Source: Tribonema minus
Taxonomy: Eukaryota > Sar > Xanthophyceae > Tribonematales > Tribonemataceae
Direction: 5' to 3'
Length of the DNA: 64,000 nt
Assembly: GCA_017506865.1 (NCBI GenBank)
Contig: JAFCMP010000024.1
Coordinates: 248,001 to 312,000, forward strand
Shown one piece after another: positions 20,981-57,392 of this stretch. Position numbers and translations under genes: made by a program. Each line of letters begins with the position of its first letter. Position 1 is the first letter of the stretch. A model generated the notes under the pieces. That model worked only from the letters and a program-made list of their open reading frames with translations, was not told where the DNA came from and did not search any database.

Positions 20981-23900
20981 TCATCCGTCGCCCGCCATCT
21001 CGGCCAGCTCCATCCACCGCTCGGTCTTGGCGTCGACCTCCGCTGCCAGCTTGGTCAGCTCCGCAGACCACTGCGCGGCGGTGGTGAGCGCAAGAGAGAG
21101 GGAGCATAAGCGCGCAGCAACCCCAGGGTCATGTGAAAGGGCTTCTGTGGGGCGCCAGTTGCAGTACCCATACGTACCGCCCATTGCGGGCGCATGCGGA
21201 GGCAGCCACACACATCCGTCATCTCCATGTGGTCTGGGCCGTCCGCCATGGCTGGGCGGTTGCAACGTCAACTAAGTTCCACTGCATATCTCGGTACCAC
21301 CCTTGCATACCTTTTCTGCTGTTCTGCATCGCCAATGTGGTGGCATCAAGCTTGCAGTCTGAAGCTACACAGAGTCGTTCAGCCTGCTAAAAGCGAGTTC
21401 ATGAAACAAGCGCATGCAGCAGCTGCGTGCTGCTTACAGCAACACGGGTGCAGCCGGCTTGAAGCGGGCTCATGAAAAAAGCGCATGCAGCAGCTGCGTG
21501 CGGTTTATAGCTACACCGGGACAGTCCACTTGATGCGAGCTCATGCAGCCAGTGCGCGCTGCAGCTGCGTGCGTCTTACAGCTGCGCAGGGACTTTCGGC
21601 CTGCTCGAAGCGAACTCATGCAGAAAGCGCATGCAGCAGCTGCGTGCGGCTTCTAGCTACACAGGCACAATCAGCTCGCTCGAAGCGAGCTCATGCAGCG
21701 CGCGCGCGCGCAGGCAGCTGCAGCGGCGCGCGTTCCGCGGCAGCACCCACACACACCTCCGCGATATCCGAGTACCCCGCGCCGCTGCCGTGGCTGCCGT
21801 CCAGCAGCGCTTGAAGTTCGCCCTGCCGCGCGCCGCAGCGCTCAATCTCCGCCTCCAGCCCCTCGTACTCGCGCTTCTCTTTGTACGACAGCTTAACCTT
21901 CTTCGCCGCGCTGCCCGCCGCTGCCGCCGCTGCCTCCGCAGCAGCAGCGGCAGCAGCAGCGGCAGCGGCGGCGGCGGCAGCATCCGCGGCGGCGGCGGCG
22001 GTCGCGACGTCGTGCTCTTTCTCCATGCTGCGGCGGTGGTCCAAGTAGTCTGAGAACGATCCGCGGAACTCGCGCACGACGCCCTCGCCCTCAAACACAA
22101 AGAGGCGCTTGGCCACCCTGTCCATGAAGAACCTGGGGAGGGGGGAAAAGGGGGGGGGGGGGAGGGGGGGGCGGTGCGCGGCGTGACATTGGCTAGTAGT
22201 CGTTCTGCGATTCCATCGAAAGTCAGTAAGCTCGCCTGCCTGCGTGTGTTAACTTCAAATGCATGAGATGAGGAGCAAGGCGCACCGAAAGACAATCTCT
22301 CTGTGAGGGCAGGGAATGCCAGGGTGCGTGTCGCAGGCACTTCAAATGTTCATTCATTCACGTTGATCCAGATGTTCGCGCTCAGATGCATCATTCAGCT
22401 GGCGAGCACCTTCTGCTCGTCCTTTTTTGCTTAAGCAGGATGCAGGGCGTCAGGAAGTGTCGCGTACCTTACGCATGCAATGGTGGAATGGGTTGCTGAA
22501 GCTGCTGAAGCAACAGCAAGCATGAAGCATGCCGCCGGCGTGGGCGCATAGAGTGCAACAGAGAATAGACATGCACGCCAGCTGCTTCACGGGCCCGCCA
22601 ATGCGCGACACCACCAGCAGCACTGTTCCCAGCCGTGCCAGGCAAAGCGACACAGGCGCCAACATGTTTGAGGTAAAAACCTGCGCAACACCACTCCTTC
22701 ACCCTTACCCTCACACTGACCCATAATGCAATATACATGCCAATGCGAATACATCCTTGGAGGAACGAGGCGCACAGCGTGACCCTGATGTATATATGCC
22801 CCTACCCAATCGCAACCTAACCTTAAGAGCAAAGAAAGTTGGACTTGGAGAGAATGAGGCAGGCAGACCCTAACTCTAACCCTAACCCTAACCCTAACCC
22901 TAAATACGGCTGTGGCAGCGCTCAGACGGCGGTGCCAGCACGCACCTGTCGTGGCTGACAATGATCAGGCAGCCTGGGGCGCAGCGCACACGCAAAGGAG
23001 GGAGCGATGGGGGCATGTGGATTTCAGACGTGCAGAAACTGCCAAACCACAAGCGACTAGCGAGCCTCAGGTGCTGTGGGGAAAGACTTTTGCCCTCGAA
23101 ACAACGCAAGTCTGAACTTTTGAAGCACATTCATTCAAACAGACGCAAGTCGGAATTATGATGCAGTTGCAGGGCAGAAAAGGGCGGGAGCGATGGGGGC
23201 ATGATGATTTTAGACGTGCACGAGGTGCCGCCTTGCAAGTGCCGTATGGTCCGCTACTGACGCGGACAATGAATGCATTCAGGCAAACGCAAGTTTGATT
23301 CTTTGAAGCAACTCAGCTTAGAGATCACATACATGGTTGCAGTACTTCCGCTGAGATGGAAAGAGTGTTTGCAACATCCAACTTGGTGACATCCAGTTGT
23401 CCAACTTCAAGATGAGACATACAGGCACATCCACCACAGAGCTGACTGGCTGACCTGAAAAACAGAAGTGCCGGTACGACAGGACTCAGATCGGAAGGGG
23501 AAAGTGGACATACTCCGAAGTTAGTCAGATTGGAAGGGCAAATTGGATAGGATACTTCTAGAAGGAACTGCCTTGTGCTCAGGCCAAGCAAGTACACTCT
23601 AAAGTGCAATCGCCACGGATGGCGTCGCGTTCTGCCTGTCAAGTCACCATGTCACATTTACGGGCTTGCACAAAATGCGTGGATCTTCAACTGCATCTCC
23701 AAACAACATGGTCCGACAAGGTTGGCCACGGGTGGTCTCTTGCCAAACCATGACATCATCAGCACAGTCCTTCTTTCAATCCTGAAAGCTCTGGTAAGCT
23801 CAATGGAACTGTGCAGAGGGGTGCTTGACAACAACGCCTCAGCGCTGAACTCACACAGCCCTGACGGGGAACAGTTCTGCCTCATGCAGACAGTCCTTAT

Positions 23901-26900
23901 TAAGCTCACGTAAGCTCCAATTAGTAGTGCAGAGCGGTGCTCGAGCTCAACAACACCCTAGTATTGAGCTTACGTGGCCTTGACAATCAGAATGAAAGTG
24001 AACTGATGTGGCTCACCCTTGTAGTCATTCAGCAGGAACTCCTCCAGCACGCTGAGCGTCGGGATGTCCAGATCGTTCGTTGGCTCGTCTGCGGCAGCAG
24101 CACATGAAAATGAATTCGTGAAGTGCAAAACCATGAACACCATGAGCATCATTCACGAGCAGGAACTCCTCCAGCACGCTGAGCGTCGGAATGTCCAGAT
24201 CGTTCGTCAGCTCATCTGTGGCAGCAGCGCATGAGAATGAATTCATGAACTGCAGCACCATGAACATGATTCACGAGCAGGAACTCTTCCAGCACGCTGA
24301 GCGTTGGGATGTCCAGATCGTTAGTCGGCTCGTCTGTGGCCGCAGCACCGCAAACATGAATTCACGAACATGAATTCATGAAGTGCAGCGCCACAAATAG
24401 ATGAGCGCGAGCCATCTCTAAACCGGCAAACTTGCAAGTGTCGGCAGTAGCCCACGCGTATAACCGTGATGTCCGTCTGTGTCATGTTGTGGGTGGCGCC
24501 TCGCACCACACCTGCGCCCAGCACAGTGGCTGACAGTCTAGCATGGTCCAACGTGGCACGAGAAGCAGTTGGCGTTGTGCCAACCGTCACGCCCTCTGCG
24601 TCGACTGCAACCGCGGTCTACCGCGCATGCCGTGCCTGGCCTCTCGAGGACACAATTGACGATAAACCGGCGCTGCGGAGGCTCCTGCCTCTTAAGATCT
24701 GAAGTGACAAATTGCTGCGGCAGCGCGTGACTGCCAAGCGAGAACGGCGTCCAGTCGTGCTGGTCCGTTGAGCGCTGATCACATCTCAGGCAGGTGGGTA
24801 CGTACGTACGTGTAGAGGCCAAAATGCGCGGCGCACCCCCCGAGCACCAAGGTTCTGGCGGCGGCGGCCAGGACCTGCAGAAGCTGACCGCTGAGGTGGG
24901 CAAGCTCAAGTCTAACCCTAACCCTAACCCTAACCCTAGCCCTAAACCTAATCCTGAACCTAACCCTACCATGCACAGCTCACCAATGTCATGAATGAAT
25001 GAAAAACGAATCAAACGGTCCTAGAGCTCAGCCTAGTTTGTGTCGAGCTCAGCTCTAATGTAAACTCTCACCCTAACTGCAACCCACCTCAATGCACGTC
25101 TCGTTCAGCACCAGAGAATGTGGGGCGGCACCCAGGACCTGCGCGTGCGGAACCTGATTGCTGACACACCTAAGGTAGGCAGGTATGAGCGGACCCTAAC
25201 CCTAACCCTAGACCATGCACGAAAATCAGGAAATGGGGGCGGCGGCCAGGATCTGATGAACATGAGCGCTGATCGCATCTGAGGTAGGCAGGAATGTGTG
25301 GACCCTAGCCCTACCCCTACTTGTTTGCACAGCTCACCGAGCACCAGGAAGTTGGGGGCGGCGGCCAGCACCTGCAGCAGCTGCAGGCGCCGCCGCTCGC
25401 CGCCGCTGAGGCGCGACACAAAGTCGTTCCAGCGCGCCGCGGGGAAGTTGAAGCGCTTCAGCAGCTGCCGCGCCGCCGCCTGCAGAGCATGGCCAGGTGC
25501 CAGTGTGAATGTTTGGCTCATCGTCCACAGGTCCAGACTATCGTGTAGAGGTGAGTTGTGTGGAGGCGAGTGTTTGTGTGCTTCATCACCATGGTGACGC
25601 GTAGTCACACAAAGTCGATCCAGCGCGCCGCAGGGAAGTTGAAGCGCCTGAGCAGCTGCTTCGCCGCCGCCTGCGGAGCATGGCCAGGTGTCATCAACAT
25701 CAACATCTGGCCCACAGGCCCAGACTTTGGGTTCGAGATGGTTGTGTGGTGAGAGTGCTTGTGCGCTTATCAGTATGGTGAAGCGTAGTCACACAACACA
25801 GACCAGCGCGCCGCCGGGAAGTTGAAGCACTTGCGCAGCTGCCGCGCCGCCGCCTGCGAGCACGTCAGCGGACGGAATGGGGCGTACCATCGTGACAGCG
25901 CCCTGCGACGGCGCGCACGAGGCGCGAGAGCTGCGTTTGATGTTAGCGAGCTGAGGCAGAAGTGCATGCGTTGGCATAGAAGCATGTACTTGATGTGTCT
26001 TATGCTGATTCAACATTGTGGTACATTGCATGTCAGCAAAGCATCATGTACCACAGCAGGCTGGCTGGCTGACCTGAGGGTTGGGGGTGGACGTGTCATC
26101 TGTAGGGTGCAGAAAGTTTGGTGGTTGTCTCTCGTTCACCGTACTTTCATGTACTGCACGAAGTATTGATGAACTCGCATGTGGCGCAGTTGGCAGACCT
26201 GGCGCGCCCATGCAGATGTCCTCGAAGAGCTGCAGCAGCACCATGTCACTCTCTTACTGGTATTTTCATGTACTGCTAGACATAGTGTTGTGAATCCCCC
26301 ACATATGGCTGACCTGAGGGTTGGGGGTGGACGTGTCGTCAGGCGCGCGCGGCACGCTATAGTTCAGCACACTTTGAAATATCATACTTCGAAGTACATG
26401 TTTCACAGTCAGAAACTATGACAATAGATACCGATGCGGGGTAGCTGCCTGGGTAAGTAGGCGCGCGCAGCCACTACCTCACGCTACACTTTGAAGACCA
26501 TGGCATCATCCATCATGTTTGTAGTCTACGGTACCGTCAATGTTGAATCACTTCAATTGATTCGTACTTCCACGTGTGGGGCAACTGGCTGACCTGGGGG
26601 TTGGGAGTGGACGTGTCGTCAGGCGCGCGCGGCACGCTATAATATACTTGACATGGTATACTTTGATGTATCATACATTGACACAACCAAAATTTACGAC
26701 AATAGATACCCATTTGGGGTAGCTGGCTGACCTGGGGGTTGGGGGTAGATGTGTCGTCAGGCGCGCGCGGCACGCCCGCGCAGATGTCCTCAACGAGCTG
26801 CAGCACGCGCTGGCCCTCGGGCACGTCCTCTAGGCCCTGCTGCTTGTAGTAACCTGCGAGCACGCATGACCGCGGGCAGTGCTGTTATTGGTACAATTCT

Positions 26901-29900
26901 CCAAAGTAGTATCTTGACACAACTAAGGGTAGTTGAATAACATATCACGCGCTCTCCCTCAGGCACGTCCTCCGGTGAGCAGGCGTGAGCTCCGGCAGCA
27001 TTGCTATGTTACAGTACTTCTCTTACAGGTACCTGTTTGATTTGAAGCATATTACAGAGGTGTGCTGAAGCTATACCAAAGCAGTATGTATAGTTTGACA
27101 CTGGCACCTGCTCCGGGCACTGCTACTTCATGTAGCCAGGGAGCAATGCACGAGCATGGACAGCACTTTGCAAGAACGCGACATCATTTAACCTGCTACC
27201 ATGGGTATGATACCCTGTATGCGCAAGTGTACCTACTTGCTGAAGTTGACAGCGCTTGAAAAAAAGGCAACACTATTGAGCAATCTCAAGCGAGGCAAGG
27301 CAGATGCATACTAGAAAGTCCAGTGTCCTTCCAACTTGCTCAAGCGTAGGTTTGACAGCGCAACTACAGTATTATTACTATTAAAACTCCTAGCACGCTC
27401 CTCATGTATGCGCACTCACAGCTGGTTGTTGTGGTAAGAACACTGATCATCTGGGCTTGTTCGCACCCTACCGCATGGGGTACCAAGTACTTCAACTTCA
27501 AAGTAAAACGTGCGTCATCCTTAAGCACGTCCTTTCAGCTCGTCCCAGCACAAGTTTGACAGCGCAACTTCATTCAGTCAGACCGATTTCTGGCTCGCTT
27601 CTCATCAATGCGCACTCACCGAAGCGCACCGTCTCGCCCACCGTGACGGTACCAGAGTCGAGCGTCTGCCTCAGGGTAAGGACGTTGAGGAAGGTCGTCT
27701 TGCCTGCGGGAGCGCGCACCAGCACGGCGCGTATGTGTGTGAGTTCAAGCATCAGTGAACTTCAAAGTTGAAGTGCACATCAGCACAGAGGCGCGGCGGC
27801 TTGCAACGTCACGAAACGCGCGTGCGTGCAGAATCGGTCAGCGCGAAGTGCGAGTGCGCAATGCGGCAGATCTGAAGTTGACGCACCTCGGCGCAAGCAT
27901 GGACAGCCTCGTGGTGCTCGCATACTTCCAAGTGTGCGTCCTTCAGTATGGTGCAGTACGCCTAACCCCAACCCTAACCCACAACTGCTGTACGCTTCCA
28001 GCCAGTGCGCTGAGCAGCTGACACGACCGATGCCGTAGGCGCCCACAACGGCAATTCTGTCCCTGCAGTACAAGATATTGAAGCAGTACACGATTTCGAA
28101 ACACATGATGCACTCGCTGAGCAGCTGACACGAGTCGCTCACCGAAGCAGTTAACCACGGCGACGACCCTGTCCTCGCAGTGCATGACATGAACACAGAT
28201 ATCATACCCAAGTGAAGCACGCAAGTCACTCGCTGAGCAGCTGACGCGAGTCACTCACTCACCGACGCCGTTCGCGCCGACGCCGCCGACCCTGTCCTTT
28301 CAAAACTTCATGACATGAAGACAGATAACTTTTCAAGTGATGTCACTCGCTGAGCGTTTAGAGAGTCACTCACGCTAGAGAGTCACTCACCGACGCCGTT
28401 CGCGCCCACGACGCCGACCCTGTCGCCGCGCTCAAAGTCGTACGAGAACTCGTCGAGAATGCGCTTCGCCGCGGAGAACGCGAGGCTCGCGTCCTCGAAC
28501 TTCAACACGGACGTGCCGAGGCGCGTCGACGCGGCTTCAATGGCGACGCTCCCCTGCGCGCCGCGCGCGGGGTTGTCGACCTTCTTCTTCAGCGCGAAGA
28601 ACGACTCGACGCGCGACTTGGACTTGGCCTGGCGCGCGCGCGGCTGCTTGCGCACCCACTCCAGCTCGTGCCGCAGCTGCCGAGGGGGGGACGGGGGGGG
28701 GGGGGGGGGGGCGACTCGATTATTGAGGTTGTCGTGCAGTACGTTGTGCCAAGATGACGAGGATCCTCTGCGCCTCTCTGGAGAGATGTCAGCGTACTTT
28801 TGTTTGCGTTGGCGGTGGTGCCTGTGCTTTACTCTTGGTCGCCAAAGAACATGAGGCCTTGCCAAGTAGCAAAAACCTGTTTTGCACCAGCACAGCAGTG
28901 CGCACAACGTGGGGGGCATGTGCATACGCCGTATGTACCGATTTGGTGGCACTGCGTCAACTTTGACTCCGAGTGCCCCGATAAAAAAAGCCCCCTTCCC
29001 TACGCCATCGGCGCAGTGCTGGGTCCGCGCAGCGACACGGACGGCTGCACCAAGCGGCACGCAGCAACTCATCTCACCCTACACCTCACTGCCCTAATCC
29101 TAGGGCCTGCGCCGACTGCGGCGCGCCGCGTGAATTGGCAATAGGTGGATGTGGCGTGCGGTGAGCACAGAGGGCGCCCCGTCCACACAAACACATTGCT
29201 TTCATGGCTAAGCATACACCCCACACCTTGTTCTTGGCGTTGGCTTGCTCCTGCCCCTCCACCCTCAGTCTATCCGCCTTGGCCTCCAGGTACTTGGCGT
29301 AGGATCCCGGGTAGCGGTACATGAGGCCCGTATCCAGCTCTAGGATTTCCTGGCACACGTTTTCCAAAAACCTGGCGAATGCGTGTCGGGCACGAGCACA
29401 GAACACCACTGATTCAGATCATGGGCTGAGCAAAATAATGTAGTAGGTGCAGTTTTGAAATGAGGAGGGCTTTGAGGAAGGACTCTGGAGCCACGAGTGT
29501 TGTACGCGATGCCTGCGACGTATTTGTGGGACTGGTACCAGGGAAAAGCACGTGGCGTGCACCGGGCTGGCACAATCACCAGCTTCCAGCGCTGACCATG
29601 AAACTTCATCAACGTGACACGCCCCCAGCCAACTTAAATGTGGTATGATGTTAGAACGAAAGTTGACCCTGACCCCAACTCCTCACCCTGACTCTAGTCC
29701 TAACTCAAATTGCGTACACAGCATCGTCCAACCAGCAAATGCATGAAGGCGTGCCTGACATGGGTCCCATACAGACTGATACATATGATACAGTTGTGGT
29801 AAACGTAAACGTAGCCCAAACCCAGGCCCTAACCCCAACCCTAAACTTAACCCCCAACGCTGGCCTTGGTGCCACGACCCACCGCTGCCATGCTGTGCCG

Positions 29901-32900
29901 TGCCGTCTATGCTTTGTGCACACTCATGATAACCGGAAAGTTGGCAACGGTCACAAGTGAACCAGAACAAGTGTCAGCCTTCTGACAGCCGAATCCTTGG
30001 ACATTGAGCACACTTTCACTGAGGAATCAAGGCCCTGGGGAGAGGGCTGACATGTAGCCGAGCGTTTTACGCTGAGCAAAGTTCTGCCGAGGGTTTCGAT
30101 GCTGGGTATGACACTACCTACCCCTAGCTCTAACTTCCAGCACCATCACAAGAACACCGGGGCGCACTGACGGCCGTGAGCGACCGCATCAGATATCAGT
30201 GCTCTGCCCACATCGAACAACGCTCAACAGGAGCGACTCACTCACCAGCGTGACTCGAACGAGCGCGGGTGCGTTGGCGCGACCCTCAAACAAAACGCAA
30301 GTGCTTGGCCATACTTCAAGTATGTGACAGCGCTCAGCGGGCGAGTCACTCACTCACCAGCAGTCGTGAGTGACCAGGAACAAATGTCATAGTGCTCTGT
30401 CTATACCTGCCACAGTGCCGAACATGAGAGGCTCACTCACTGGCGTGACCCAAACAAACGCGAGTAGTGGCCATACTTCAAGTGTGTGACAGTGCTCAGC
30501 GGACGACTGACTCACTCGCCAGCGGTCGTGAGTGACCAACCAGAAACACGCCAGCAGTCACAAATGACCAGAACAAGCATCGTCGTTTTGAACGCCAAGT
30601 TCTTCAACATTGAGCATACCTTTGCTTGGGGTTTGAGCTCCTGGTAGCCGAGCAAGTCAGATTTGAGCAAAGTTATGCTGCGGGCGACTCACTCTCTCAC
30701 TCACTCACCAGCGGTCGTGAGTGACCAGGACGAACGTCAGCGCTCTGTCCGAGAGCAGGTCCTCCAGCCACTCTATCGCTTCCACATCCAGGTGGTTGGC
30801 TGCGGAAAGATGCGGTCCAGGAACGTACGCCGCACATCAATGGGGGGCGCAGCGAGTGTGGCAGGAGCTGCATGTGCCCCTGCAAGCTGAGCAGCGAGGT
30901 TGCGGTCGACGTACAAGTGCACTGACACATACAGCACGTGCACAACATACATACAAACATGGCACGGTGTAACTGCCGGCAGGCCCTCGTCTCCTTGAGA
31001 TTGGGTTTAGGGTTAGGGTAGGGTTAGGGTTAGCACGCCAGATCAGCGGCACGAGTGGAGGTGCTTTCTTTCTGGTCTGGGTTAGCGTTAGGGTAGTGTT
31101 GGGCTGGGGGTTGGCGCGATGAAATTCACTGCCCGTTGTCGAGTAGCAGCACGTTGAACGCCTGCACTAGCGCCGCGCCGCCTTGTCACGTGTAACAGTT
31201 GCGCTTGTGTCTTTGCGGCTGCGATTGGTTTTACGGCATGAGTAAAGCTGCCATGACTCAGACAGTACGCACTCACTGGGCTCGTCGAGCAGCAGGACGT
31301 CCAGCGGCTGCACGAGAGCCGCCGTTGAAATGTGCCCCTTTCAAGCTGTTCTACATTGGGGGGGGGGGGGGGGGGGGGGGGCAATGCACATAGCAGTTGC
31401 GGCTGCGAGTAGTAACCCCCTCGTTGTGATGACTGAGACTCACTGGGCTCGTCGAGCAGCAGGACATCCGGCGCCTGCACGAGCGCCGCCGCCAGCGCCA
31501 CGCGCTTCTTCTCCCCGCCCGAGAGCCGGTCCACGCTCTGCGCGCGCAGCCCGTCGACGCGCAGGCGGCTCATGATCTGCGCCGCGCGCCCCTCCGCGTC
31601 CCACGCGTTCTCCCTCTGTTTGAAGAGCAGCGGACAACGGACAGATGCCATGGAGGCTACTTCAAGGAGTGCTACGTTTGCTGATCTGCGCTGCTCGGCG
31701 GTCCGCGTCCCACGCGTCCTCCCGCTGTGCCAGTGGTTCATAAGGACAGCGGTGAGCGAATGCTGTTGATAATGTCGCCTTGGTCACTTATTCTTGCAAG
31801 TGGTTGAAGTTGCATTACTATCAGGCTTGTGACTCTCCCACAGTCTATATGATCTGCGCAGTGCCGGCCCTCCACGTCCCACGCGTTCTCCCTCTGTATG
31901 GGCGGCGCACGAGAGTGCAGCGGTGTACAAATGCTGTGAATAATGCCGCCTTGACTTGTTTCAAAAGTAGTTGAAATTGATTCAGTAGTGGTGGCGATGA
32001 CTCTCCCACAGTCTATATGATCTGAGCCGCGCGGCCCTTCGCGTCCCACGCGTTCTGGCGCTGCGTAAATGGGGCATGAGAGCGGAGCGGCGAGCAAATG
32101 CTGTCGATAATGTCGCCTTCACAACTAAATTGAGCAGCTGGTGGCACTGCTCGCATCTGGTGACTCTCCACACCCGGCGCTCTGATGCAGCGCCATCCCA
32201 AGTAACGGCGCGTGTCAATGTCGCGGCAGGGGACGCCTTGTCTAGCCCTAGCCCTAGACTCTTGCCGCATGCCACTTTATATATACTTACACAAAGTATG
32301 CTCATATAGGGCACTACGCGTCGGTAGCGTCCAGGGAAACGCCTCTCAAACGCTGCCCAGCTACCATTGTGTGCGTTAACTTCACCAGCGGATGCAAAGC
32401 GTTGACGACATGGACAACCGCATGTAGACAACAGAAACGCTGCAACACCACCAAGTTCATGGCACTACTTGAACTACATCTGGAAAACGAGCCACCAATC
32501 ACAGGGCTGCTGAGCAGCGGCTGACCGGTTCAGCCAAGAACCCTCCGCTGCGCACTTCCATGCTGAGCGTCACCATCGCTCCTCCTCGCAGCTTGCCTGC
32601 CACATCAATGTGCTGCGTAGGTACCCACGTTGCTCGTCATCATAGCTGCCTACTCAGTGCTCGTCATTGTAGCTGCCTACCCCCCACAGGCACCGCAGCA
32701 GCGGCACGCAGCGCGCACCTCCATGGCGGCCATGGCCCTCTCGAAGCGGGTGTTGGCGGCCGCGTCCTCGGGGTGCTCCGTAACCGCCGCCGTGGCCTCC
32801 TCGTACTCGCGCAGCGTGCGCATCATGGGCGCCTCGCTTGCGTACACCGCCTCCAGAACGGTCGCGCCGGGAGGGAACACGGGTTCCTGCGGCCGAGGCA

Positions 32901-35328: not shown

Positions 35329-36354
35329 GCGTGTATCAACGGAATTGCACTGAACACATCATGAGCGTACACCGCTAGCACGTCACAACAATCTGTGAAG
35401 TTCAACTGAAACTTCATTTCATAGTTCATGTCGAAGTTCCGACCTTCATCTCATTGAACTTCATAAGTTGCAACTTGCTCGAGCAGAATTCTGATTCTGG
35501 CCGCTGGATGATCCATGGGCAAACTTTCACATACAGCACTAGCCATATGTATACTATGTATAGAAACGGCCCGGCATCGCCTGACGCCAGTTGACAGTCA
35601 CACCTTCAAAATAACTCACATGCCTGTTTGCAATTTGACCTCATCTTCAAATTCAAACGATGCTTCCAGGGAGACCGGGAATGCTTCCCTGGAGTCAGAT
35701 TATGCCTCTGCAGTCACTGTGCTGCTCTTGAGAAGAGGCAAACTGCTGCACTGGCTTGCAGATTGATGTATCGAGTGGTGTCGGTCCACATACGCAGATG
35801 CCATAACAAAACGGTGCATCCAGCGATTGCAGATGCGCAAGCAGCACTGAGCCCACATTAAGACCAGCGACAGCAACGCACCAGACACACGCACAACCCT
35901 TTTCACTGAAGCTGAGATGGAGTGGCATGCAGAGGACGCAGTGTGCCGCGGCGGCGCGCAGCCTTCCCACGCGCGCGCATGTACCACAATCCACCGCCTC
36001 TGCTGTGCGTGTTTACTACTGTGTAGTGACCCGTGTATGGTACTGCTGCCAAGGGGCGTCCAGGGCTGCCGCGCTGTGGCATATGTTGGTGACAAGGGGG
36101 GGAGGGGGGGGCACTTGAAGTGGGCCGCCCCGCCCCCCACTCACGCACTTTATTTCGCACTTCACATCACGCTCTGCACGCCCGCATTGCCCCTAGCCAA
36201 AACCACGTGAGGTCATGCCTATGTCCGAGAGCCCGCCGGAAGAGCCAGCATGGGGGAAAGGGGGGTGGGGGAGGGGGGGCGCAAGAGTCCACCTGCTACA
36301 ACTTGTTGAAGTGCAGCTGCGCGTATCATCGCCGCCGCAATGGAAATAGGCCTC
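35329..36354. other. intergenic, no supported gene
   Basis: This holds the ABCF 5' flank (AT-richer, with repeated GAAGTTCAACTGAAACTTCA-type motifs at 35397-35430) and the 3' flank of the UBL gene, with G-runs at 36098-36110 and 36258-36280. Open frames here have no recognisable domain. Confidence 0.5.
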
Positions 36355-39028: not shown

Positions 39029-39368
39029 AGTAGCTCCCCCAGTCTTGATGCAACACTCCAGGCGCGCCTTAGTGTGTGCTTCGCTTCACAGTGCTGGCCG
39101 TTCTCACGTCGACCTAGCCGAGGCAACACCCGCGCCTCGTTCCGAGCCGCCGCTGGCTGTCGTTGATCTGGAGCGAATAGGCAAGCCCTGAACAAGCTCT
39201 GAAGACTACAGCAAAGGCGGGTTCCGCTCACAATGCTCGTGTACTTAAACCTGCGTGTCCAACGATGCGGGACAAAAGCGGAGGGTTAGGGTTAGCAGAA
39301 GTTAGGTTCGCAACTTGATCTGCCTTCACCAAGAGGTTCTAGGCAGGTTTGGCGGCGTCCCTGGAGCC
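39029..39368. promoter_or_regulatory. shared upstream region of UBL and myotubularin genes
   Basis: This is a gap of about 340 bp between divergent start codons. It contains a short TTAGGG tract at 39284-39296, just ahead of the myotubularin start. An in-frame upstream ATG at 39315 would add 18 residues to that protein. Bidirectional promoter function is inferred from layout. Confidence 0.4.
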
Positions 39369-45300: not shown

Positions 45301-48300
45301 AGTGGTCGGCGCTGGTGGAGGACACGGTGAGTCACACTGACCCTGAGTTCAATGCTGACTTCAACTCTAACGGCTTACCTCGACCCTGAGTCTGACTTGC
45401 CGAGGCAGTCGCAGACGTCTGACGCAAGTGGTCCGCGCTGGTGGAGGACACGGTGAGCCCCCCTGACCCTGACTCTAATGACCTCAATTTTGGCTCTGAG
45501 TTTGAGTCACCGAGGCAGTCGCAAACTCCGAATCGCCGTTGGCGCTGGTGGAGGACACGATGAGACGCTCTATTCCTAACCCTCAATGCTAACATCGACT
45601 CTGACTGTGACTCGCCGAGGCAACTGCAGGATGCAGGGTCGCCGCCACCGTGCAAAAGTGACTGGCGCGGGCTACTGTCCCGCTGGTTGCGCGCGCCGTT
45701 CGTGATGCTTTGCTTCTGGTGCAAGCCTGGAAGTTGCTGGTCCGGCGCGCTGTAATCAGCTAACCCTGACCCCAGGAGTGTTTCGTCAGGTGGTTACAAC
45801 GCGGGTCTCGCTACCCCAGCGCTCAGCATGTGGTGAGCAGCGGCGGTACGTGGCGCGGCGCTGGTGACGTTTCACCGGGTGCAGGGCTCGTCCGCTGTGA
45901 TACGTACCTACCCTCATCGCACAGGCCTCCAGCGCAGCGCAGTCGCGGCGTTGCACCAGAGTGCAACGGAGTCCTGCCTCATTATTACCTCTGTGCTTGC
46001 TGAGCCTCCCTCTCGCCGCGCCACATCTGACGTTGGTTCACCTAGACGTCAACAGTCGCATCCTCAGTCTCACCTGGACTTCAACCCCCATTTTCAACTT
46101 CAACTTCAGGGCTGGCTGGGGCACGTGCGCACAGTGCTCAGCGCATCGTGGGTGACGGCGTACCATGCGCACTGGGACAGGACGCCCGTCCTCGTGCACT
46201 GCAGCCACGGGTGGGACCGCACTTCTCAGGTGAAAACGCTGCGTCATGTGGTTCGTGGTAATATATCGGATGTAGAATGCATTTGTTAGCATGGTACCCC
46301 CGTGGGGTGCGCCAATGGTATATGGCAGATATACTTCAACTTGAAGTATGGAACAGGACGGCCGTCCTCTTGCTCTGCAGCCACGGCTGGACCGCACATC
46401 GCAGTTGGAACGCTGCGTCATATGGCTTGATGAACCTCAGGTGTACTGCTTGGCGGTCGTCGTGTGTGTGGCCACACGGCATACGCCCATTTCATGTGTA
46501 TGATTCAAGTTGAAGTGCGGCACAGGACGCCCGTACTCATGTACTGCAGCCATGGCTGGGACCGTACTTCGCAGGTGCGCTCGCTTGTGAAACTGTGTTA
46601 GTTGCACTACCACCCACAAACGCGCTCACCCCCCCTTCCCCCACCCTTCTGTCTCCAACGACACAAATTGTGCCCCCAACAAAGATGCTCATCCCGGACA
46701 GGTGGCAGCGCTTGCGCAGCTGCTGCTTTACCCGCACTACTGTACCACCCACAAGGAGTGCTCACCCCCCCCCCCCCCCTCCAATGAAGTCGCTGCTATG
46801 TTGTCTGTTGACAAGCCTGACAAGCCCGCCCCCCCCCCGCCCCCCCCCATGTCTCAAATGGTGATGTTCATCCTACAGGTGGCAGCGCTCGCGCAGCTCC
46901 TGCTCGACCCGCACTACCGCACGCTCGCCGGCTTCCGCACGCTGATTGAGAAGGACTGGCTGTCGTTCGGCCACCCCTTTCAGCTGCGCCACCAGCACGG
47001 CGTTGCTCGCCCCGGCGGGAGGGACGACCAACGCAGCCCTGTGTTTTTGCAGTTCCTGGACTGCGTGTGGCAGCTGCTCAACCAGGTAGGCGCGCGCCTG
47101 AGTCTGGTCTACTTGTAGTGCGCACTGGCGCCGCCTGTCTATTCAGCGCCTTCAGGTAGTTTGGTTGAAGTTTAAATATGGCAGGGACGACCAGCGCAGC
47201 TCTGTGTTTTTGCAGTTCCTGGACTGCGTGTGGCAGCTGCTCGACCAGGTAGGAGTAGGAGCAGCGCGCTGCGCATGGCAGTTGCTGAGCCAACTAGGCG
47301 TGTGTGCTACGGGAGGGCTCTGCGTGTCTGCATACATTCATGTACTTTGAAGTAGTTGAAGTTTGGCGGGCACGACCAGCGCAGCCCCGGTATTTTTGCG
47401 GTTCCTCGACTGCGTGTGGCAGCTGCGCAACCAGGTAGGAGCGTGAGCGCAGTCTACTTGCAGCGCGCATGCGCACGACCGGTTTGTCCTGCGCCTTCAG
47501 GGAGTTGAAGTATGGCAGGGACGCTTAGCACAGTTGCGTATTTCTGCAGTTCCTGGATTGTGTGTGGCAGCTGCTCATCCAGGTAGGGGCGCGCCTGAGC
47601 TAGGTCTGCTTGTAGCGCGCACTCGCGCCTCCTGTCTATCCTGCGCCTTCAGGTAGTTGAAGTTGAATTATGGCAGGGACGACCAGCGCAGCCCCGTCTT
47701 TCTGCAGTTCCTGGACTGCGTGTGGCTGCTGCTCAACCAGGTAGGAGCTAGGCGCGCACGTGTCTGTCTGGTGCATTCATGGACTTGGAAGCATGGCAGG
47801 GACGCTTAGCGCACTTGCGTATTCCTGCAGTCCTTGGACTGCGTGTGGCAGCTGTCCAACCAGGCAGGAGTAGGAGAAGCGCGCTGCGCATGGCAGTTGC
47901 ACAGCCTGCTGCGCGCGTGTGCTTGAGGAGGGGTCTGCCATGACTGCGTACATCCATGTAGTTGAAGTTTGGCAGGGACGACCAGCGCAGCCCCGTCTTT
48001 CTGCAGTTCCTGGACTGTGTGTGGCAGCTGCGCAACCAGGTAGCAGCGCGCGCTGCGTGTGGCAGTTGCACAGCTCGCTAGGCGCGTGTGCTTGGGGAGG
48101 GGGGCTGCGATGTCTATGCGGCAGGTTTGTCTGTCCTGTGCATCCACGCAGTTGCGGTATGGCAGGGATGACCAGCGCAGCCCCAGAGTTCATGCATGCG
48201 CGAGGCAGCTGTGCATTCTGCAACGTTAGAAGGTAGAAAAACCACGCAGAGGACTGCGCCGGGTCCATCCTTTTATCACCCAGTTTCGCCGTCGGCAAGA

Positions 48301-49091
48301 ACCAGAAGATCACAAGATAGATGCGCTGGCCGACCACGCGGTGCAGATGCTGAAGAAGTTTGGCAAGACGGCTCAAGTTTCTTATTTTTGCTGAGCGAAC
48401 AGTGTCGCCGTCAGTCAGCAAACACCATAAACTTGCACCGTCTTGCCGGATTTCTTTGGCATCTGTACTGCGTGGTTGGCGAGCGCATCTATCCTGTTGT
48501 CCTTTTGGTTCTTGCCGACGACGAGACCGACCGAATACAGAATAGACCCGGCGCAGTCCTCTGGGTGGTTTTTCCTCTCATCTAACGTTGCAAAAATGCG
48601 AGTCGCGGCTGCAGCAGACAAAGTCGGAGCAGCCAGGTACGCGCACGCCTGGACCTGCACGCAGCTTGCTGCGGCTGTGTTGAAGTAGTTGTTGAAGAAG
48701 TCGCAGGGTGGCAGGAGCGACCAGCGCACCACCGTGTTCCCGCAGTTCCTGCACTGCTGCATGCGGCGGCTGTCCGTGTAGGTGAGGCACACGCTGCGTG
48801 CGGCAGTTGCCTGAACGTGCCCTGTCCGATCGGTTCGCTCGTGCGGTGCCGCGACAAACACGGTATGTGCAGCCCGGTCACTCACAGTGTCTGGCATCGT
48901 TGACGCATGAAGAAGCGTCTACACTATGTACGCACAAACCTCCCTGCTGTCAGTACTGGCACAGTTGATGGTGGTGCGCCAATGCGGCGCGTGAACGTTC
49001 ACACTGCGGGCGTGTCAACTGTGAGGCAACCACCTGCCATCATCATTCACATACGCCCCCCCGCCCCCCCCCCCCCCCCCCCCCTCTGCGA

Positions 49092-49123
<32 letters not shown>

Positions 49124-51765
49124 GTTCCCCTCCGCATCTGAGTTCAACGGGCGCTACCTGCTGTGCATGGCGGACCACCTGCACTCGTGCCGCTTCGCCA
49201 TCACCACCCGCCATCATCATTTACCCCCCCTCTGTCATGCATGCCCCCCCCAGTTCCCCTCCGCTTTTGAGTTCAACGGGCGCTACCTGCTGTGCATGGC
49301 GGACCACCTGCACTCGTGCCGCTTCGGCACGTTCCTGCTGGACAGCGAGAGGGAGCGACGCGAGGCGCAGCTTGCCGAGCGCTGCGCCAGTATGTGGACG
49401 TACCTCGAGGTGAGTTGTTGCGGCAGCGCGCGGCTTCGTGAGCATACCTCGAGCCGAACAGGGTTCAATCTGTTCGTTTGCCAACATTATAGTTGCCAAC
49501 ATTATATTGTAGTTCTTTTCCGTTGAAACTCAGCTCCCTGAGCGCTGCGCGAGTCTGTGGACGTACCTCGAGGTGAGTAGTTTCAGAAGCGCGCGACTTT
49601 GTGAATGTACTTTGACGTGAACAGGGTTTGATTTGTTGCGATATGAATTATACAAGCGCGCGCAATCAACCCGCGGCGCACTGACCCCTCCCCGCCCCCA
49701 CCCCCCTCCCCCTTCCCCGCTCAGGCGAATCGCGCCAGTTTCCTCAGCCCGTTCTAAGTGTGGTGCGGCCCCGACGCGGGGACGGGCGACGGCGCGTGCG
49801 GGTCGTGTTTCAACATCATGATATACGTATATGCCGCTATGCAAAGCACAGCATCACGCGTGCGCGCGATCAAGCTGACACCCCCTCCCCCCCCCCCCCT
49901 TCGAGCTTAGGCAGATCGCGCCAGCTTCCTCAGCCCGTTCTATGTGTGGCGCGGCCCCGACGCGGGCAGCGGCGACGGCGCGCGTGTGTCGGGCTTACAA
50001 TATACACATATACCGCAATAAACAGCTTGGCATCACGCATGCTGACACCCCCTCCCCCCCCACCCCCACCGCTCTCTGCTTAGGCGAATCGCGCCAGCTT
50101 CCTCAGCCCGTTCTACGCGTGGCGCGGGCCCGATGCCGGAAGCGGCGACGGCGCGTGCGTGTCGTCACGGCTCGCGTGCCGCGGCGCGTACGGCGTGCTG
50201 CTGCCGGCGCTGCCCGCGCTGCTGCGGCGCGTCGCGCTGTGGCACGACTACTACCTGCGCTGGAGCCCCAAGCCGTCGTTCCCGGGGGTGCCCAAGTGCC
50301 TGCACGACGTGAGCTAGCGTGCCTGCTGCGAAATGGCACTGCTATAAAATTTGATGTCATTTTTGAGTCAGTTGCTCCCAGCAGATTTTACGTACTTTTG
50401 AAGTAACAAAAGCAGTGTGTCTACTCGCTGCCCGAAGCCGTCGTTCCCGGGGGTGCCCAAGTGCCTGCACGACGTGAGGGGGCGCCAGCGAGCACGCTTG
50501 CTGCAACATGGCTTTGCTCTAATGCGTATGCTTCGAAGTTATCGATTCCTAATCAGTTGCTCTCAGCAGGTTGTGCTAAACAAGTACTTTGAAATATTTA
50601 TCTGAGTACTCTCTCTTGGCAAAACTGGCTGCCAATTACCATTTTCCCCGACTCTGGCACCTGCTACGCATCTGATTGGGCTGCAACTGTGCAGCGTCCG
50701 CACCCGTTGGCGGGTGTAGAATTTGACCCCAGGTTGCTCATGCGCTGAGTCTCTTGCGCCCCCCCCCCCCCCCCCACCCAACTTCACTTGCAGGCCTTGG
50801 CACAGCAGGTGGGGGGCATAGGCGAGTCCGCTCTCAACTCGGGCAGTGATGGGCAACCTCCTGCGCAAACTGAAGGTGATGATGCTGCGTTGGCGTTTCC
50901 CCTGTGATGGCTGCTGGACGCTGTACTATACATGTTCATGGCCACTGTCGTCTACCTGTGTGTGTTCAACACGCGGGCAGCACTTGAGAAAAAGTCTGGT
51001 AGATTGAGGTGCTGTGCCATCTGGCCCGCGCATGATCACTTCACTGCGCTCGCTCCTCGTGCCACGCTTTGTAGTTCACGTCACTTGACACCAAGCAGAA
51101 GGAGCCACGGAACCCGCCTCCCTAAATTATGATGGGCTGCTCCCAGTCAGTCACGAATGCAGCGCGCCCTCACCCATCACTCAGTCGTGTCGCTGATGCT
51201 CAGCGCTCTCAGCCCAAATCGCATCACTAAATGCACCTGCGCTGTCAAATATCAGCTTTTTTAGCCTGAATGGCGTCACTGCTTCAAACACCAGCGCTTT
51301 CAGCCTGGGTGTCATTACTGAACGCACCCGCGCTGCCCCTGCCCCGCGCGCGCCCGCGCAGCCGACGCCGCCATCGACGAGTACGAGTGCCTGTCTGATG
51401 AGATGGAGGGCTGGGTCAAGCTCATGCAGCAGCGCGCGTGCGCGGCGGAGGCGGCGGCGGACGCGGCGCGCGCGGACGCCGACGCGCTGCGCGCGCGCCT
51501 ACTTCAACTTGAACTCTGCGGCGCCGCGCCGGCGGACGCTCCTGCCGCCGCCGCCGCCGCCAGCTCTGAAGCGCGTTCGCCGCACTGCAACGGGGATGCG
51601 GCGGCGGCAGCAGCAGCAGCGCCTGCGGGCGGCGAGGCAGCGTTCACGGCGACAGAGCCGGCGCGAGCGCCGTCGGCGGTGGTGGCATCGCCGCCGCCGT
51701 TGCGCGGCGGTAGGCCGGCGGCGGCGGCAGCGGCAGATCCGTTTGCCGGGCTGGGGCTGCGATAG
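39369..51765 (+). CDS. myotubularin-family phosphoinositide 3-phosphatase, 11 exons
   Basis: Exons 39369-40388, 41551-41804, 42752-42926, 43983-44097, 45166-45326, 46110-46229, 46879-47085, 49254-49409, 50084-50308, 50794-50821 and 51362-51765 join in phase to 954 residues. A long Ser/Pro/Gln-rich N-terminus leads into a GRAM/PH domain (about 232-425). Family signatures follow: [13 protein letters not shown], then [25 protein letters not shown], the P-loop [11 protein letters not shown] (Cys606, Arg612), [30 protein letters not shown], and [21 protein letters not shown] coiled coil ([20 protein letters not shown]) and an Ala-rich tail end the protein. Myotubularins remove the 3-phosphate of PI3P and PI(3,5)P2 on endosomes. 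Here the Asp two residues after the catalytic Cys is His, while Cys, the second Asp and Arg are kept. Exon 1 ends at a GC donor. The 28-bp exon with a GC donor was chosen because it alone restores phase, so it is the least certain part. Confidence 0.9.
41362..41460 (+). repeat. echo of myotubularin exon 2 acceptor edge
   Basis: GTGACTCTCCTCCAG plus the first 90 bases of exon 2 ([20 protein letters not shown]) precede the true exon at 41551 by about 177 bp. It is nearly intact, but its frame dies soon after the copied part. Confidence 0.88.
41830..42060 (+). repeat. echoes of myotubularin exon 2 donor edge
   Basis: TTCACGCTGCTGAATCACGA, then CTATAGGTGAGG and the trailing G-run, AAGAGGCCCTAGTA, is repeated at about 41878-41955 and 41985-42060. 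Poly-G tracts (41908-41928) replace part of the unit. Confidence 0.82.
42985..43070 (+). repeat. echo of myotubularin exon 3 donor edge
   Basis: TCACGCATCGATGTGGAGGT, then CGAGCCAGCCGCGCG and GGCATGCAGCAGG repeat the exon-3 end ([15 protein letters not shown]). A second short piece (CATGCAGCAGGTGTG) follows. Confidence 0.88.
44165..44620 (+). repeat. echoes of myotubularin exon 4 donor edge
   Basis: The exon-4 end ([20 protein letters not shown]) recurs at about 44170-44232 nearly intact, and as weaker copies at 44385-44425 and 44548-44605. Each is followed by a GCGTCACCACTT-type sequence, as after the true donor. Confidence 0.85.
44821..44850. repeat. interstitial CCCTAA tract
   Basis: Two exact and three degenerate CCCTAA units in myotubularin intron 4. 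Confidence 0.85.
45405..45565 (+). repeat. echoes of myotubularin exon 5 donor edge
   Basis: ACGTCTGACGCAAGTGGTCC, then GCGCTGGTGGAGGACACGGTGAG (45414-45455) and a shorter copy (45535-45563) repeat the exon-5 end. The following intron text (CTGACCCTGACTCTAATG) is also repeated. Confidence 0.87.
46335..46580 (+). repeat. echoes of the catalytic exon 6 donor edge
   Basis: The P-loop exon end is copied at about 46352-46402 (decayed) and 46518-46575. The second copy keeps [11 protein letters not shown] and its GTGCGC donor. Both copies are preceded by TTCAASTTGAAGT. Confidence 0.9.
46690..46800 (+). repeat. echo of myotubularin exon 7 acceptor edge
   Basis: CATCCCGGACAG, then GTGGCAGCGCTTGCGCAGCT and GCTG precede the true exon (46879) by about 178 bp. 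A C-run (46768-46778) sits where the unit's pyrimidine tract would be. Confidence 0.85.
47165..48045 (+). repeat. six tandem echoes of myotubularin exon 7 donor edge
   Basis: The last 60-80 bases of exon 7 plus donor (GGGACGACCAGCGCAG to CAACCAGGTAGG) recur with junctions at 47248, 47434, 47582, 47740, 47863 and 48039, against the true junction at 47085. The steps are 163, 186, 148, 158, 123 and 176 bp. Most are preceded by a GTAGTTGAAGT-type motif. Further partial copies lie near 48158-48190 and 48705-48785. Confidence 0.93.
48210..48600. mobile_element. foldback (long-hairpin) element
   Basis: The left arm (about 48212-48365) and the right arm (about 48432-48598) are reverse complements. 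Both read inward from TGCAACGTTAGA, then GAAAAACCAC, AGAGGACTGCGCCGGGTC and on to GGCAAGACG. A loop of about 65 bp separates them. No protein is encoded. It lies within the exon-7 echo array of myotubularin intron 7. It is probably a non-autonomous foldback or MITE. Confidence 0.75.
49064..49122 (+). repeat. long poly-C tracts before an exon 8 copy
   Basis: Two C-only runs (21 and 29 bases) separated by TCTGCGATG end directly at a CAG acceptor of the first exon-8 copy. Confidence 0.92.
49123..49200 (+). repeat. echo of myotubularin exon 8 acceptor edge
   Basis: CAG, then [19 protein letters not shown] and HSCRF lies 129 bp upstream of the true exon 8 (49254), nearly identical. After HSCRF it departs into ATCACCACCCGCCATCAT, which matches the intron text upstream. 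Confidence 0.92.
49536..49580 (+). repeat. echo of myotubularin exon 8 donor edge
   Basis: CTGAGCGCTGCGCGAGTCTG, then TGGACGTACCTCGAGGTGAG repeats the exon-8 end (49370-49412) 162 bp downstream. Confidence 0.88.
49722..49995 (+). repeat. two echoes of myotubularin exon 9 acceptor edge
   Basis: CAG/TAG, then NRASFLSPF and WCGPDAG-like sequence start at 49725 and 49911, against the true start at 50084 (steps 186 and 173 bp). Each has the same C-rich pyrimidine tract upstream. The first copy has a stop (TAA) in place of TAC. Confidence 0.92.
50425..50500 (+). repeat. echo of myotubularin exon 9 donor edge
   Basis: CCCGAAGCCGTCGTTCCCGG, then GGTGCCCAAGTGCCTGCACGACGTGAG repeats the exon-9 end (50268-50312) about 169 bp downstream. 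Confidence 0.92.
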
Positions 51766-56700: not shown

Positions 56701-57392
56701 GCGGTGGGCGTATTAACTGCGCAAGATACATGAAAATACATGGCAGTTAACTCAATTGACATTTGTCATGTAGCAGCAGTGCACTGTCAAACATACGGCA
56801 AGGGGATCAAAGCTTTTGTGTCACGGTTCAGTTGAGTGTAGACCTGACTCAGAGACTATTAGCGCGGTGTCCTATGCCCACTGCGCACCGCAGCTGCACC
56901 TGCAATGATTGCAGTGTCGCACGTCATACCTCTTGCAGTACACACGCGCCGCTTTCTGCGCAGCATCAGAGGACGCTGGATGCGCGCACAGCCATCAGCA
57001 CTGCTCGCCACCGCCTATGTTGAGCTTTGGCGTAGCTCACTGCATCCTTGTGCTGTTGTGCACAAGGCGCAGTCTGCGGAACAGCAGAGGTTGCCATACG
57101 TACGGGAAGCAACTTGCTGGTACTTCTATGCTGCTGCAGCTCCCGCACTGTCCATCTCTCAGCGCGTCACGCCTCGCATTTGTTTGGACGCTCGCAGGCT
57201 GCTGAGCCGCCACTTGAAGATGACGCTCCAGCGGCAGGTTCAAGCCCCGAGGGCGGACCGCCGTACTCAAACCCCTGCGGAAGAGACCTCAGAAGGTTTT
57301 GGAGTCCAGCCCTGGGTTTTCACGTGCGCGAAGGCTGGGAGTTCAACACCTTGAACGCTCTGCTCCCGGACGACCCTCGGTCAACAGAATAG
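53735..57392 (+). CDS. zinc-ribbon Nudix hydrolase (NUDX23-like), five exons
   Basis: Exons 53735-54008, 54734-54874, 55441-55549, 56140-56317 and 57198-57392 join in phase to 298 residues. The basic, Ser/Arg-rich N-terminus may be an organelle leader. A zinc ribbon follows (Cys58, Cys65, Cys84, Cys87) around VVVPDGDDTPRRVCQTCGF, the hallmark VPDGDxRPR of the NUDX23/ADP-ribose pyrophosphatase-like group. After YQNPRVV comes the Nudix core LYLLVKRSIPPCRGYWALPG, then GFMELGETVEAGAA and REAREEACATL. The box Glu and Arg residues are present, but the usual Gly after EE-x is Cys155. Exon 4 gives LVFSAALASPDISSG and FEWEDIPWPRLAFPT, typical of the family's C-terminal half. Plant NUDX23 hydrolyses FAD and ADP-ribose in plastids, and the same chemistry is likely but unproven here. 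The last 65 residues are an unconserved extension. Two decoy acceptors precede exon 4. Confidence 0.88.
55753..56030 (+). repeat. two echoes of Nudix exon 4 acceptor edge
   Basis: CAG, then TCACCTGGTGTTCTCC and LASPDVSSG begin at 55755 and 55953, against the true exon at 56140 (steps 198 and 187 bp). Both copies stay open only until the GCGCAC region, then leave the family sequence. Confidence 0.92.
56500..56720 (+). repeat. echoes of Nudix exon 4 donor edge
   Basis: GCTGATGCACCACCGCGCGC, then CAGCAGTGG and GTCAACTGC-like text, ending CTTGAAGGTGAG, repeats the exon-4 end (56268-56320) near 56510-56578. A weaker copy (GCGGTGGGCGTATTAACTGC) lies near 56700-56722. Confidence 0.8.

What the first reader, a model, noticed from the sequence alone, without database searches (positions are those of the whole stretch)
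20981..57392. Introns built from decaying tandem copies of the neighbouring exon edges
In ABCF, myotubularin, Nudix and (weaker) RPF2, nearly every long intron contains direct copies of the 30-100 bp at the adjacent exon boundary, splice site included. Donor-edge copies lie downstream of the exon and acceptor-edge copies lie upstream. Copies get less similar with distance from the real edge. The spacing is mostly 120-200 bp. The pattern holds in genes on both strands with unrelated functions, so it reflects a genomic process and not one gene's history. It suggests introns lengthen by repeated tandem duplication across exon-intron junctions, leaving old splice sites as decoys. I know of nucleosome-sized introner elements in some algae (Micromonas, Aureococcus), but those are inserted elements, not copies of the local exon.
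Basis: partly seen in the sequence, partly recalled or inferred. Interest (0 to 1): 0.92.

Follow-up and report, generated by a model that had tools for sequence, protein, structure and literature searches.

The report
Introns lengthened by duplicated exon edges
In this alga-like genome, introns often carry slightly decayed direct copies of the adjoining exon's last or first ~50 bases with its splice site, pointing to small tandem duplications that strike the exon-intron boundary and help introns grow.

Summary
In ABCF, 11 of 24 exon edges have a strong direct copy ("echo") in the adjoining intron; shuffled and reverse-complement controls stay lower. In 20 kinesin gene stretches elsewhere in the same 158-Mb genome, chosen for having several exons, 36 of 116 edges do. 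Controls: reverse-complement 0/116, shuffled 0/116, foreign edge 1/116, mid-exon 3/91. A random 10-kb stretch held another case (LipB-like).

Spacing is 82-204 bp in 93 of 113 cases, never less; the copied exon part has median 47 bp. Junctions are preferred: 33 edge families against 11 intron-only; 14 to 0 at >=88% identity, 8 to 2 at >=92%. Introns with echoes are longer, median 1,097 against 704 bp.

Echo splice sites are neither kept nor removed specially (91/113 against 341/422 control dinucleotides), so they look like neutral decoys. Decay with distance is weak; RPF2 was not located.

Best explanation: recurrent junction-spanning tandem duplication, perhaps from repair of staggered breaks (inferred). 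Introner insertion and cassette exons were tested and not met. Ten literature searches listed no paper that I recognised as describing this.

The parts
33978..34133 (-). ABCF exon 2 (donor edge at 33978), source of three downstream echoes
   Evidence: tblastn to P0002-P0006; echoes
33803..33865 (-). donor-edge echo of exon 2, offset 164, 95% identical, GTCAGC kept
33686..33743 (-). donor-edge echo of exon 2, offset ~286, 80%
33461..33545 (-). donor-edge echo of exon 2, offset 484, 83%, GT changed to GC
32719..32886 (-). ABCF exon 3 (acceptor edge 32886)
33010..33090 (-). acceptor-edge echo of exon 3
33195..33238 (-). acceptor-edge echo of exon 3, farther copy
31444..31615 (-). ABCF exon 4 (acceptor 31615, donor 31444); echoes on both sides
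31682..31728 (-). acceptor-edge echo of exon 4, offset 109
31849..31900 (-). acceptor-edge echo of exon 4, offset 278, ACAG kept
32017..32056 (-). acceptor-edge echo of exon 4, offset 445
31271..31324 (-). donor-edge echo of exon 4, offset 167, 93%, GTGAGT kept
31120..31179 (-). donor-edge echo of exon 4, offset 314, 75%
30346..30538 (-). two donor-edge echoes of ABCF exon 5 (edge 30709)
28132..28296 (-). two donor-edge echoes of ABCF exon 7 (edge 28391)
26064..26637 (-). array of donor-edge echoes of ABCF exon 9 (edge 26732)
25607..25862 (-). two acceptor-edge echoes of ABCF exon 10 (edge 25479)
24840..24886 (-). donor-edge echo of ABCF exon 10 (edge 25338), offset 497, 84%, without GT
24149..24363 (-). 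two acceptor-edge echoes of ABCF exon 11 (edge 24088)
44170..44273 (+). donor-edge echo in myotubularin (edge after 44097), offset 146
45410..45622 (+). two donor-edge echoes in myotubularin (edge after 45326)
46349..46577 (+). two donor-edge echoes in myotubularin (edge after 46229)
46684..46740 (+). acceptor-edge echo of the exon starting at 46880
47180..48062 (+). six-copy array of donor-edge echoes of the exon ending at 47085; a seventh copy at 48709-48810
49115..49200 (+). acceptor-edge echo (poly-C tract and CAG kept) of the exon starting at 49254, 96.5%
49531..49637 (+). donor-edge echo of the exon ending at 49409
49690..49991 (+). two acceptor-edge echoes of the exon starting at 50084
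50430..50478 (+). donor-edge echo of the exon ending at 50308, 98% over 49 bp

Best explanation
Small DNA segments, mostly 82-204 bp, that straddle an exon-intron junction are duplicated in tandem again and again in this genome. Each event gives exon tail - intron - exon tail' - intron' (or the mirror image at acceptors). Splicing presumably keeps using the site next to the intact exon. The second copy is therefore swallowed by the intron, which gets longer, and it decays as a largely neutral decoy.

Shown: the copies; their direct orientation; unit size; junction preference; longer introns with echoes; no special upkeep or removal of echo splice sites. Inferred: which site is used (no RNA data), and that the events come from staggered breaks or paired nicks near splice sites, filled in and end-joined, with one end about 50 bp inside the exon and the other 50-150 bp inside the intron.
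For: Kinesin edges: 36/116 with echo; controls 0/116 (reverse complement), 0/116 (shuffled), 1/116 (foreign edge), 3/91 (mid-exon).

Junction preference: in 40 introns (35,945 bp) 33 edge families against 11 intron-only (P = 8.6e-6 even if edge copies stay detectable three times longer; the null assumes 90 usable positions per edge).

Geometry: exon part over 80 bp in 4 of 49 exons, where uniform breakpoints predict 24.6; 93 of 113 spacings in 82-204 bp, none below 82.

Echo-bearing introns are longer, P = .009, 18 against 19 introns. Direct to inverted local repeats are 237 to 3 in the kinesin loci. Echo GT/AG kept in 91/113 against 341/422 control dinucleotides. Changes private to one echo fall on codon positions 73/61/99, against 5/2/25 for changes private to the exon, so echoes are at most weakly constrained as protein.
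Against: The break-repair step rests on orientation and rough size only; the small tandem duplications in the paper I read are described as short, under 100 bp, and most units here are longer. Junction microhomology was not tested. Poly-G/C runs near the edge do not predict echoes. Telomeric-repeat arrays in the same introns are not associated with echoes (0.68 against 1.20 per kb).

The tandem-unit reading needs the intron part to be copied too. In a plain global alignment the 60 bp beyond the splice site was near random identity in most of 20 ABCF pairs; by eye about half of eight kinesin pairs align clearly, others weakly.

Exon parts look better conserved than a neutral unit predicts when copies are found by the exon side (real-echo .85 exon.69 intron; simulation .85/.78), and between echoes (24 of 27 edges). 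This reverses when copies are found by the intron side (.71 exon.78 intron, 38 copies), so ascertainment explains much but perhaps not all. The third-position excess in echo-private changes (99 of 233) is a mild anomaly under strict neutrality. At 90 and 92% identity with 30 bp the edge preference is 10:2 and 8:2.
Confidence: 0.75

Rival explanations
1. Tandem duplications arise evenly along genes and only look edge-biased because the exon copy is protected by selection and stays recognisable longer.
For: In a neutral simulation exon-anchored copies stay more similar than intron-intron copies of the same age. Intron-seeded searches find fewer copies (38) than exon-seeded ones (113; scoring differed somewhat). 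At 92% identity the split is only 8:2.
Against: Among pairs of at least 88% identity and 35 bp, edge families are 14 to 0, and a threefold detection advantage still gives P = 5e-6. Echoes usually stop about 50 bp into the exon rather than spreading along it (4 of 49 over 80 bp against 24.6 expected).
Confidence: 0.13
2. Echoes are kept by selection as working splice decoys, competing sites or alternative exon ends.
For: Exon parts and splice-site consensus are often strikingly intact (for example window 50430-50478, 98%). Echo-echo exon parts exceed intron parts (24 of 27 edges).
Against: GT/AG in echoes is kept no better than control dinucleotides (91/113 against 341/422). Intron-seeded copies show no exon-part advantage. 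Using an echo would add intron sequence to the message (reasoning, no RNA data).
Confidence: 0.07
3. Gene conversion from the exon keeps refreshing echoes, so they outlive other repeats.
For: Exon parts are closer between echoes than the neutral simulation allows when exon-seeded (.82 against .70). Identity hardly falls over the first four ranks.
Against: Does not by itself explain why high-identity intron-only families are so few. Ascertainment explains part of the signal.
Confidence: 0.12
4. Introner-like or other mobile elements inserted next to exons, with long target-site duplications.
For: Unit spacing 82-204 bp recalls nucleosome-sized introners (recalled). One dispersed repeat (L052:7107-7225, also near window 15508-15621 and L045:609-705) lies just inside the intron at an echo-bearing donor edge.
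Against: Of 127 cross-locus matches the 40 best were printed and read: mostly kinesin coding exons plus a few dispersed repeats; none is common to many spacers (the other 87 were not read). Several aligned units match across their intron part.
Confidence: 0.04
5. Assembly artefact (expanded or mis-joined repeats).
For: The assembly appears to hold some regions twice at about 95% identity (L009/L011).
Against: Most echo copies differ by 5-30% from the exon, recur on many contigs and keep a similar geometry; the myotubularin region matches only itself apart from short stretches.
Confidence: 0.02

Closest known systems
[quoted passage not shown] potato RdRp case, PMC4974935, passages read; review PMC3443670, passages read)
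   Same: Local tandem duplication that copies exon sequence and a splice site (in potato the duplicate inherits a 3' splice site and exon parts).
   Different: There the duplication creates a new intron. Here the copy lies inside an existing, longer intron, which only lengthens, repeatedly and in many genes.
Small tandem duplications from fill-in of staggered DNA breaks by CST-Pol alpha (PMC8355091, abstract, introduction and discussion read)
   Same: Direct tandem duplications that need no sequence family.
   Different: The paper describes short (under 100 bp) duplications, mostly at engineered breaks in mouse and human cells; units here are mostly 82-204 bp. The enzymes, the breaks and targeting to splice junctions are untested here.
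Introners (nucleosome-sized inserted introns; recalled from Micromonas, Aureococcus; Amoebophrya paper PMC7789003 seen only as a listing)
   Same: Similar unit size; also add intron sequence genome-wide.
   Different: Introners are dispersed families shared by many genes; the echoes are copies of the local exon edge.
Tandem exon duplication and mutually exclusive exons (recalled)
   Same: Direct copies of exon sequence next to the exon.
   Different: Those copy the whole exon with both splice sites. Here 0 of 49 exons of at least 110 bp are copied to the far end.

Membership tests
Tandem-duplication intron gain (Rogers model) | New intron equals one duplicated exonic segment, donor and acceptor from the two copies | tested here: not met
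   The ABCF echoes listed lie inside introns of 644-1,337 bp with further intron before the next exon; intron lengths
Tandem-duplication intron gain (Rogers model) | Source is a local duplication in direct orientation that includes exon sequence | tested here: met
   237 direct to 3 inverted in kinesin loci; echoes at 36/116 edges
Introner | Intron sequence belongs to a family shared between unrelated genes | tested here: not met
   No element common to many spacers among the 40 best of 127 cross-locus matches
Mutually exclusive or cassette exon duplication | Copy includes the whole exon with both splice sites | tested here: not met
   0 of 49 exons of at least 110 bp copied to the far end
Break-induced small tandem duplication | Direct tandem copies without a sequence family | tested here: met
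   Direct orientation; no shared family seen
Break-induced small tandem duplication | Size class (under 100 bp as described in PMC8355091) | tested here: inconclusive
   93 of 113 spacings are 82-204 bp, most above 100; size in that model follows where priming starts on the overhang
Break-induced small tandem duplication | Dependence on staggered breaks and CST/Pol alpha or end-joining | not testable with these tools
   Needs genetics; telomeric-repeat arrays in the same introns are not associated with echoes
Break-induced small tandem duplication | Microhomology or filler at the duplication junction | not tested
   Copies too diverged to fix junctions to the base

The most novel reading that the evidence does not exclude
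Splice junctions are mutational hot spots in this lineage. A process tied to transcription or splicing makes staggered breaks around splice sites, with one end about 50 bp into the exon. Their repair ratchets introns longer in units of about 118 and 175 bp, making junction-targeted tandem duplication a main engine of intron growth in the whole genome.
Probability: 0.38. Interest if true: 0.86.

Novelty: new variant of a known kind. Interest (0 to 1): 0.7.

Why it matters
How introns lengthen is usually put down to transposons and drift (recalled). Here many long introns show a readable record of growth by one process, with a starting template (the exon edge) that stays under selection and so helps to date each copy. 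If junction-targeted, it links splicing or transcription to a specific mutation type. It also fills introns with strong decoy splice sites, a natural test of how the spliceosome picks the right one. Gene finders could be misled in such genomes.

Tried and rejected
Introner or mobile-element origin: no element common to many spacers among the 40 of 127 cross-locus matches that were printed. Cassette exons: copies never reach the exon's far end in 49 exons. Poly-G/C tracts as break sites: no positive association. Telomeric-repeat insertion as a co-product of the same breaks: arrays occur in 17 of 37 introns but not preferentially with echoes. Protein-coding constraint on echoes: single-echo changes are spread over codon positions 73/61/99 (two of eight myotubularin edges there were put in the wrong frame, which blurs the counts slightly). 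Special conservation of echo exon parts: looked strong and exceeded a neutral simulation, but intron-seeded copies show the reverse, so I do not claim it. Allelic comparison: only L009/L011 was at hand; no tandem-duplication difference in 3.7 kb. RPF2: not found. The DNA search of the ABCF region was swamped by a low-complexity exon. No other eukaryote genome could be read with these tools, so conservation in relatives is untested. Literature: ten searches listed no paper that I recognised as reporting junction-spanning duplication as a genome-wide source of intron length; judged from titles and abstract starts, two lists were cut (12 of 14, 15 of 32), and most subscription journals are not held.
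Full report
Setting. The window is C24:248001-312000 of an unnamed 158-Mb, 554-contig genome, 57.6% G+C. An ABCF protein assembled from its exons has its closest named relatives, by identity, in Chrysoparadoxa australica (53%) and Ectocarpus (51%); the top hit by score is an unnamed protein at 39%. The organism is therefore probably a stramenopile of the brown-algal side (the grouping is recalled); no species name was established.

Checking the observation. Self-comparison of the window gave 86 local direct repeats and 1 inverted. Many are in ABCF (41 by the slightly different settings, 20.9-34.9 kb) and myotubularin (33, 39.3-51.9 kb); 34.9-39.3 kb has none there. Repeats at 15.9-20 kb are something else: a periodic cysteine-rich coding repeat. 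Exon limits of ABCF were set by tblastn with seven related proteins (output cut in the last) and refined to GT/AG; the joined exons give an open frame once exon 9 is corrected. For each edge, up to 60 bp of exon plus 15 bp of intron was searched in the adjoining intron. 11 of 24 edges scored 39-117, against shuffled maxima of 23-33 and reverse-complement scores of at most 26. Echoes often include the splice site, for example GACCAG|GTCAGC at 164 bp and AGCCCA|GTGAGT at 167 bp from the true edge; others have lost it. Myotubularin has a donor-edge array of seven copies.

Genome-wide test. Kinesin motor domains were located in the whole genome (132 matches). Splice sites were chosen by consensus, reading frame and nearness to the domain match, without looking at repeats. 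Of 116 edges, 36 have an echo scoring 40 or more (15 of 55 donors, 21 of 61 acceptors). Controls were 0 reverse-complement, 0 shuffled (20 shuffles each), 1 foreign edge, and 3 of 91 windows 70-150 bp inside the exon. Four of the 20 stretches (L035, L036, L042, L043) had no edge at 40 or more, so the pattern is common, not universal. Four randomly placed 10-kb stretches carry 64 direct and 0 inverted local repeats, unevenly (29, 2, 10 and 23 by my count of the printed lists). The longest array of L056 is at the start of an exon with a lipoyl ligase domain (LplA-B_cat, E = 2.5e-13), with three upstream copies, each with its GCAG; here about 95 bp of exon is copied. Of ten open frames scanned in L053, L055 and L056 this was the only one with a Pfam hit, so the other repeats there could not be tied to genes; L054 was not scanned.

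Edge preference. In 37 introns with both ends known (32,453 bp) there are 27 edge families (14 donor, 13 acceptor) in 20 introns, 11 intron-only families and no inverted pairs. Adding three myotubularin introns gives 33 against 11. Positions available (90 per edge assumed) would predict about 19% at edges. Even if edge copies stay visible three times longer, P = 8.6e-6, and for pairs of at least 88% identity and 35 bp the split is 14 to 0. Window-by-window profiles agree: hit rate .33 at the edge, about .11-.18 between 280 and 680 bp into the intron.00-.03 in the window's intergenic parts, and .05-.29 in the four random stretches.

Geometry. Over 54 edges and 113 echoes the exon part has median 47 bp (quartiles 37-59; parts under 15 bp were not accepted). 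It exceeds 80 bp in 4 of 49 exons where uniform breakpoints would give 24.6. 93 of 113 spacings are 82-204 bp and none is smaller, although the search began 25 bp from the edge. A two-component fit (118 and 175 bp) beats one component by about 10 BIC units for the spacings up to 204 bp, which is suggestive only. Of eight full-unit alignments printed, about half show a clearly shared intron part with indels, the rest a weak one; in most of 20 ABCF pairs a simple alignment of the 60 bp beyond the splice site was near random.

Fate of echoes. Introns with echoes are longer (18 introns, median 1,097 bp, against 19, median 704; P = .009), also when only the 300 bp next to each edge is searched (rank correlation .44, P = .007); spans from edge to farthest echo cover 25% of intron bases (this edge-alignment count gives 18 echo introns where the family count gives 20). 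Nearest echoes beat farthest in 22 of 30 edges, but mean identity is nearly flat over the first four ranks and lower only in the six copies beyond. GT/AG in echoes survives as often as control dinucleotides (91/113 against 341/422): no sign that decoy sites are kept or purged. Changes found in one echo only are spread over codon positions (73/61/99), whereas changes found in the exon only are synonymous-like (5/2/25). Echoes thus behave mainly as dead sequence while the exon stays under protein constraint.

An open point. When echoes are found by their exon side, exon parts look too well conserved: real-echo .85 exon against .69 intron (102 pairs), echo-echo .82 against .70 (91 pairs). A neutral simulation gives .85 against .78 and near equality between echoes. 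The difference holds per edge (24 of 27 positive, P = .003 against +.05). When copies are found by their intron side the order flips (.71 exon.78 intron; 38 copies). Ascertainment therefore matters; gene conversion or weak constraint is possible but not shown.

Mechanism. Duplication spanning the junction is what the sequence shows. Why junctions are hit is unknown. Poly-G/C runs and telomeric inserts do not mark the hit edges. The duplicated interval's centre falls just inside the intron, near the splice signals, which would fit a transcription- or splicing-linked break source; this is inference.

Comparison and novelty. Intron gain by tandem duplication is established (PMC4974935 and PMC3443670, passages read), but there the duplication makes the intron. 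Here existing introns are lengthened from their edges, repeatedly and in many genes. Ten literature searches over an open-access library listed no report that I recognised as the same thing. I rate it a new variant of a known kind.

Noticed in passing
introns of ABCF and kinesin genes; window 22876-22899, 24912-24935, 25196-25207: Short telomere-like (TTAGGG) arrays sit in 17 of 37 introns (29 arrays) and are far denser in introns than in exons or most of the window's intergenic parts. Origin or role unknown.
   Followed up: partly
introns genome-wide (58 introns): The words ACTTCAAC, AACTTCAA and TTGAAGTA are strongly over-represented in introns, each in 12-14 of the loci examined; possibly a short repeat or a splicing-related motif.
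   Followed up: no
window 48216-48595: A 380-bp stretch in the long myotubularin intron matches its own reverse complement at 78%: a large imperfect palindrome, possibly a fold-back mobile element.
   Followed up: no
window 5252-5390 and 8659-8797; L053:7751-7924; L040:2475-2598: A dispersed repeat of about 120-180 bp present in both orientations in the window and on other contigs.
   Followed up: no
L052:7107-7225; window 15508-15621; L045:609-705: Another dispersed repeat of about 70-120 bp shared by three places, in L052 just inside an intron.
   Followed up: no
window 15952-16506 and 19411-19890: Two neighbouring stretches of 54-bp cysteine-rich coding repeats inside a 1.5-kb direct duplication at 77% identity.
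   Followed up: no
window 58176-59818 and 61853-63488: Two copies 78% identical over 1.66 kb; the first holds an ankyrin-repeat frame by Pfam, the second was not scanned.
   Followed up: no
G000 contigs C90 and C179 (L009, L011): Contigs carry collinear kinase matches, about 95% identical where compared, so the assembly probably holds some regions as two haplotypes.
   Followed up: partly
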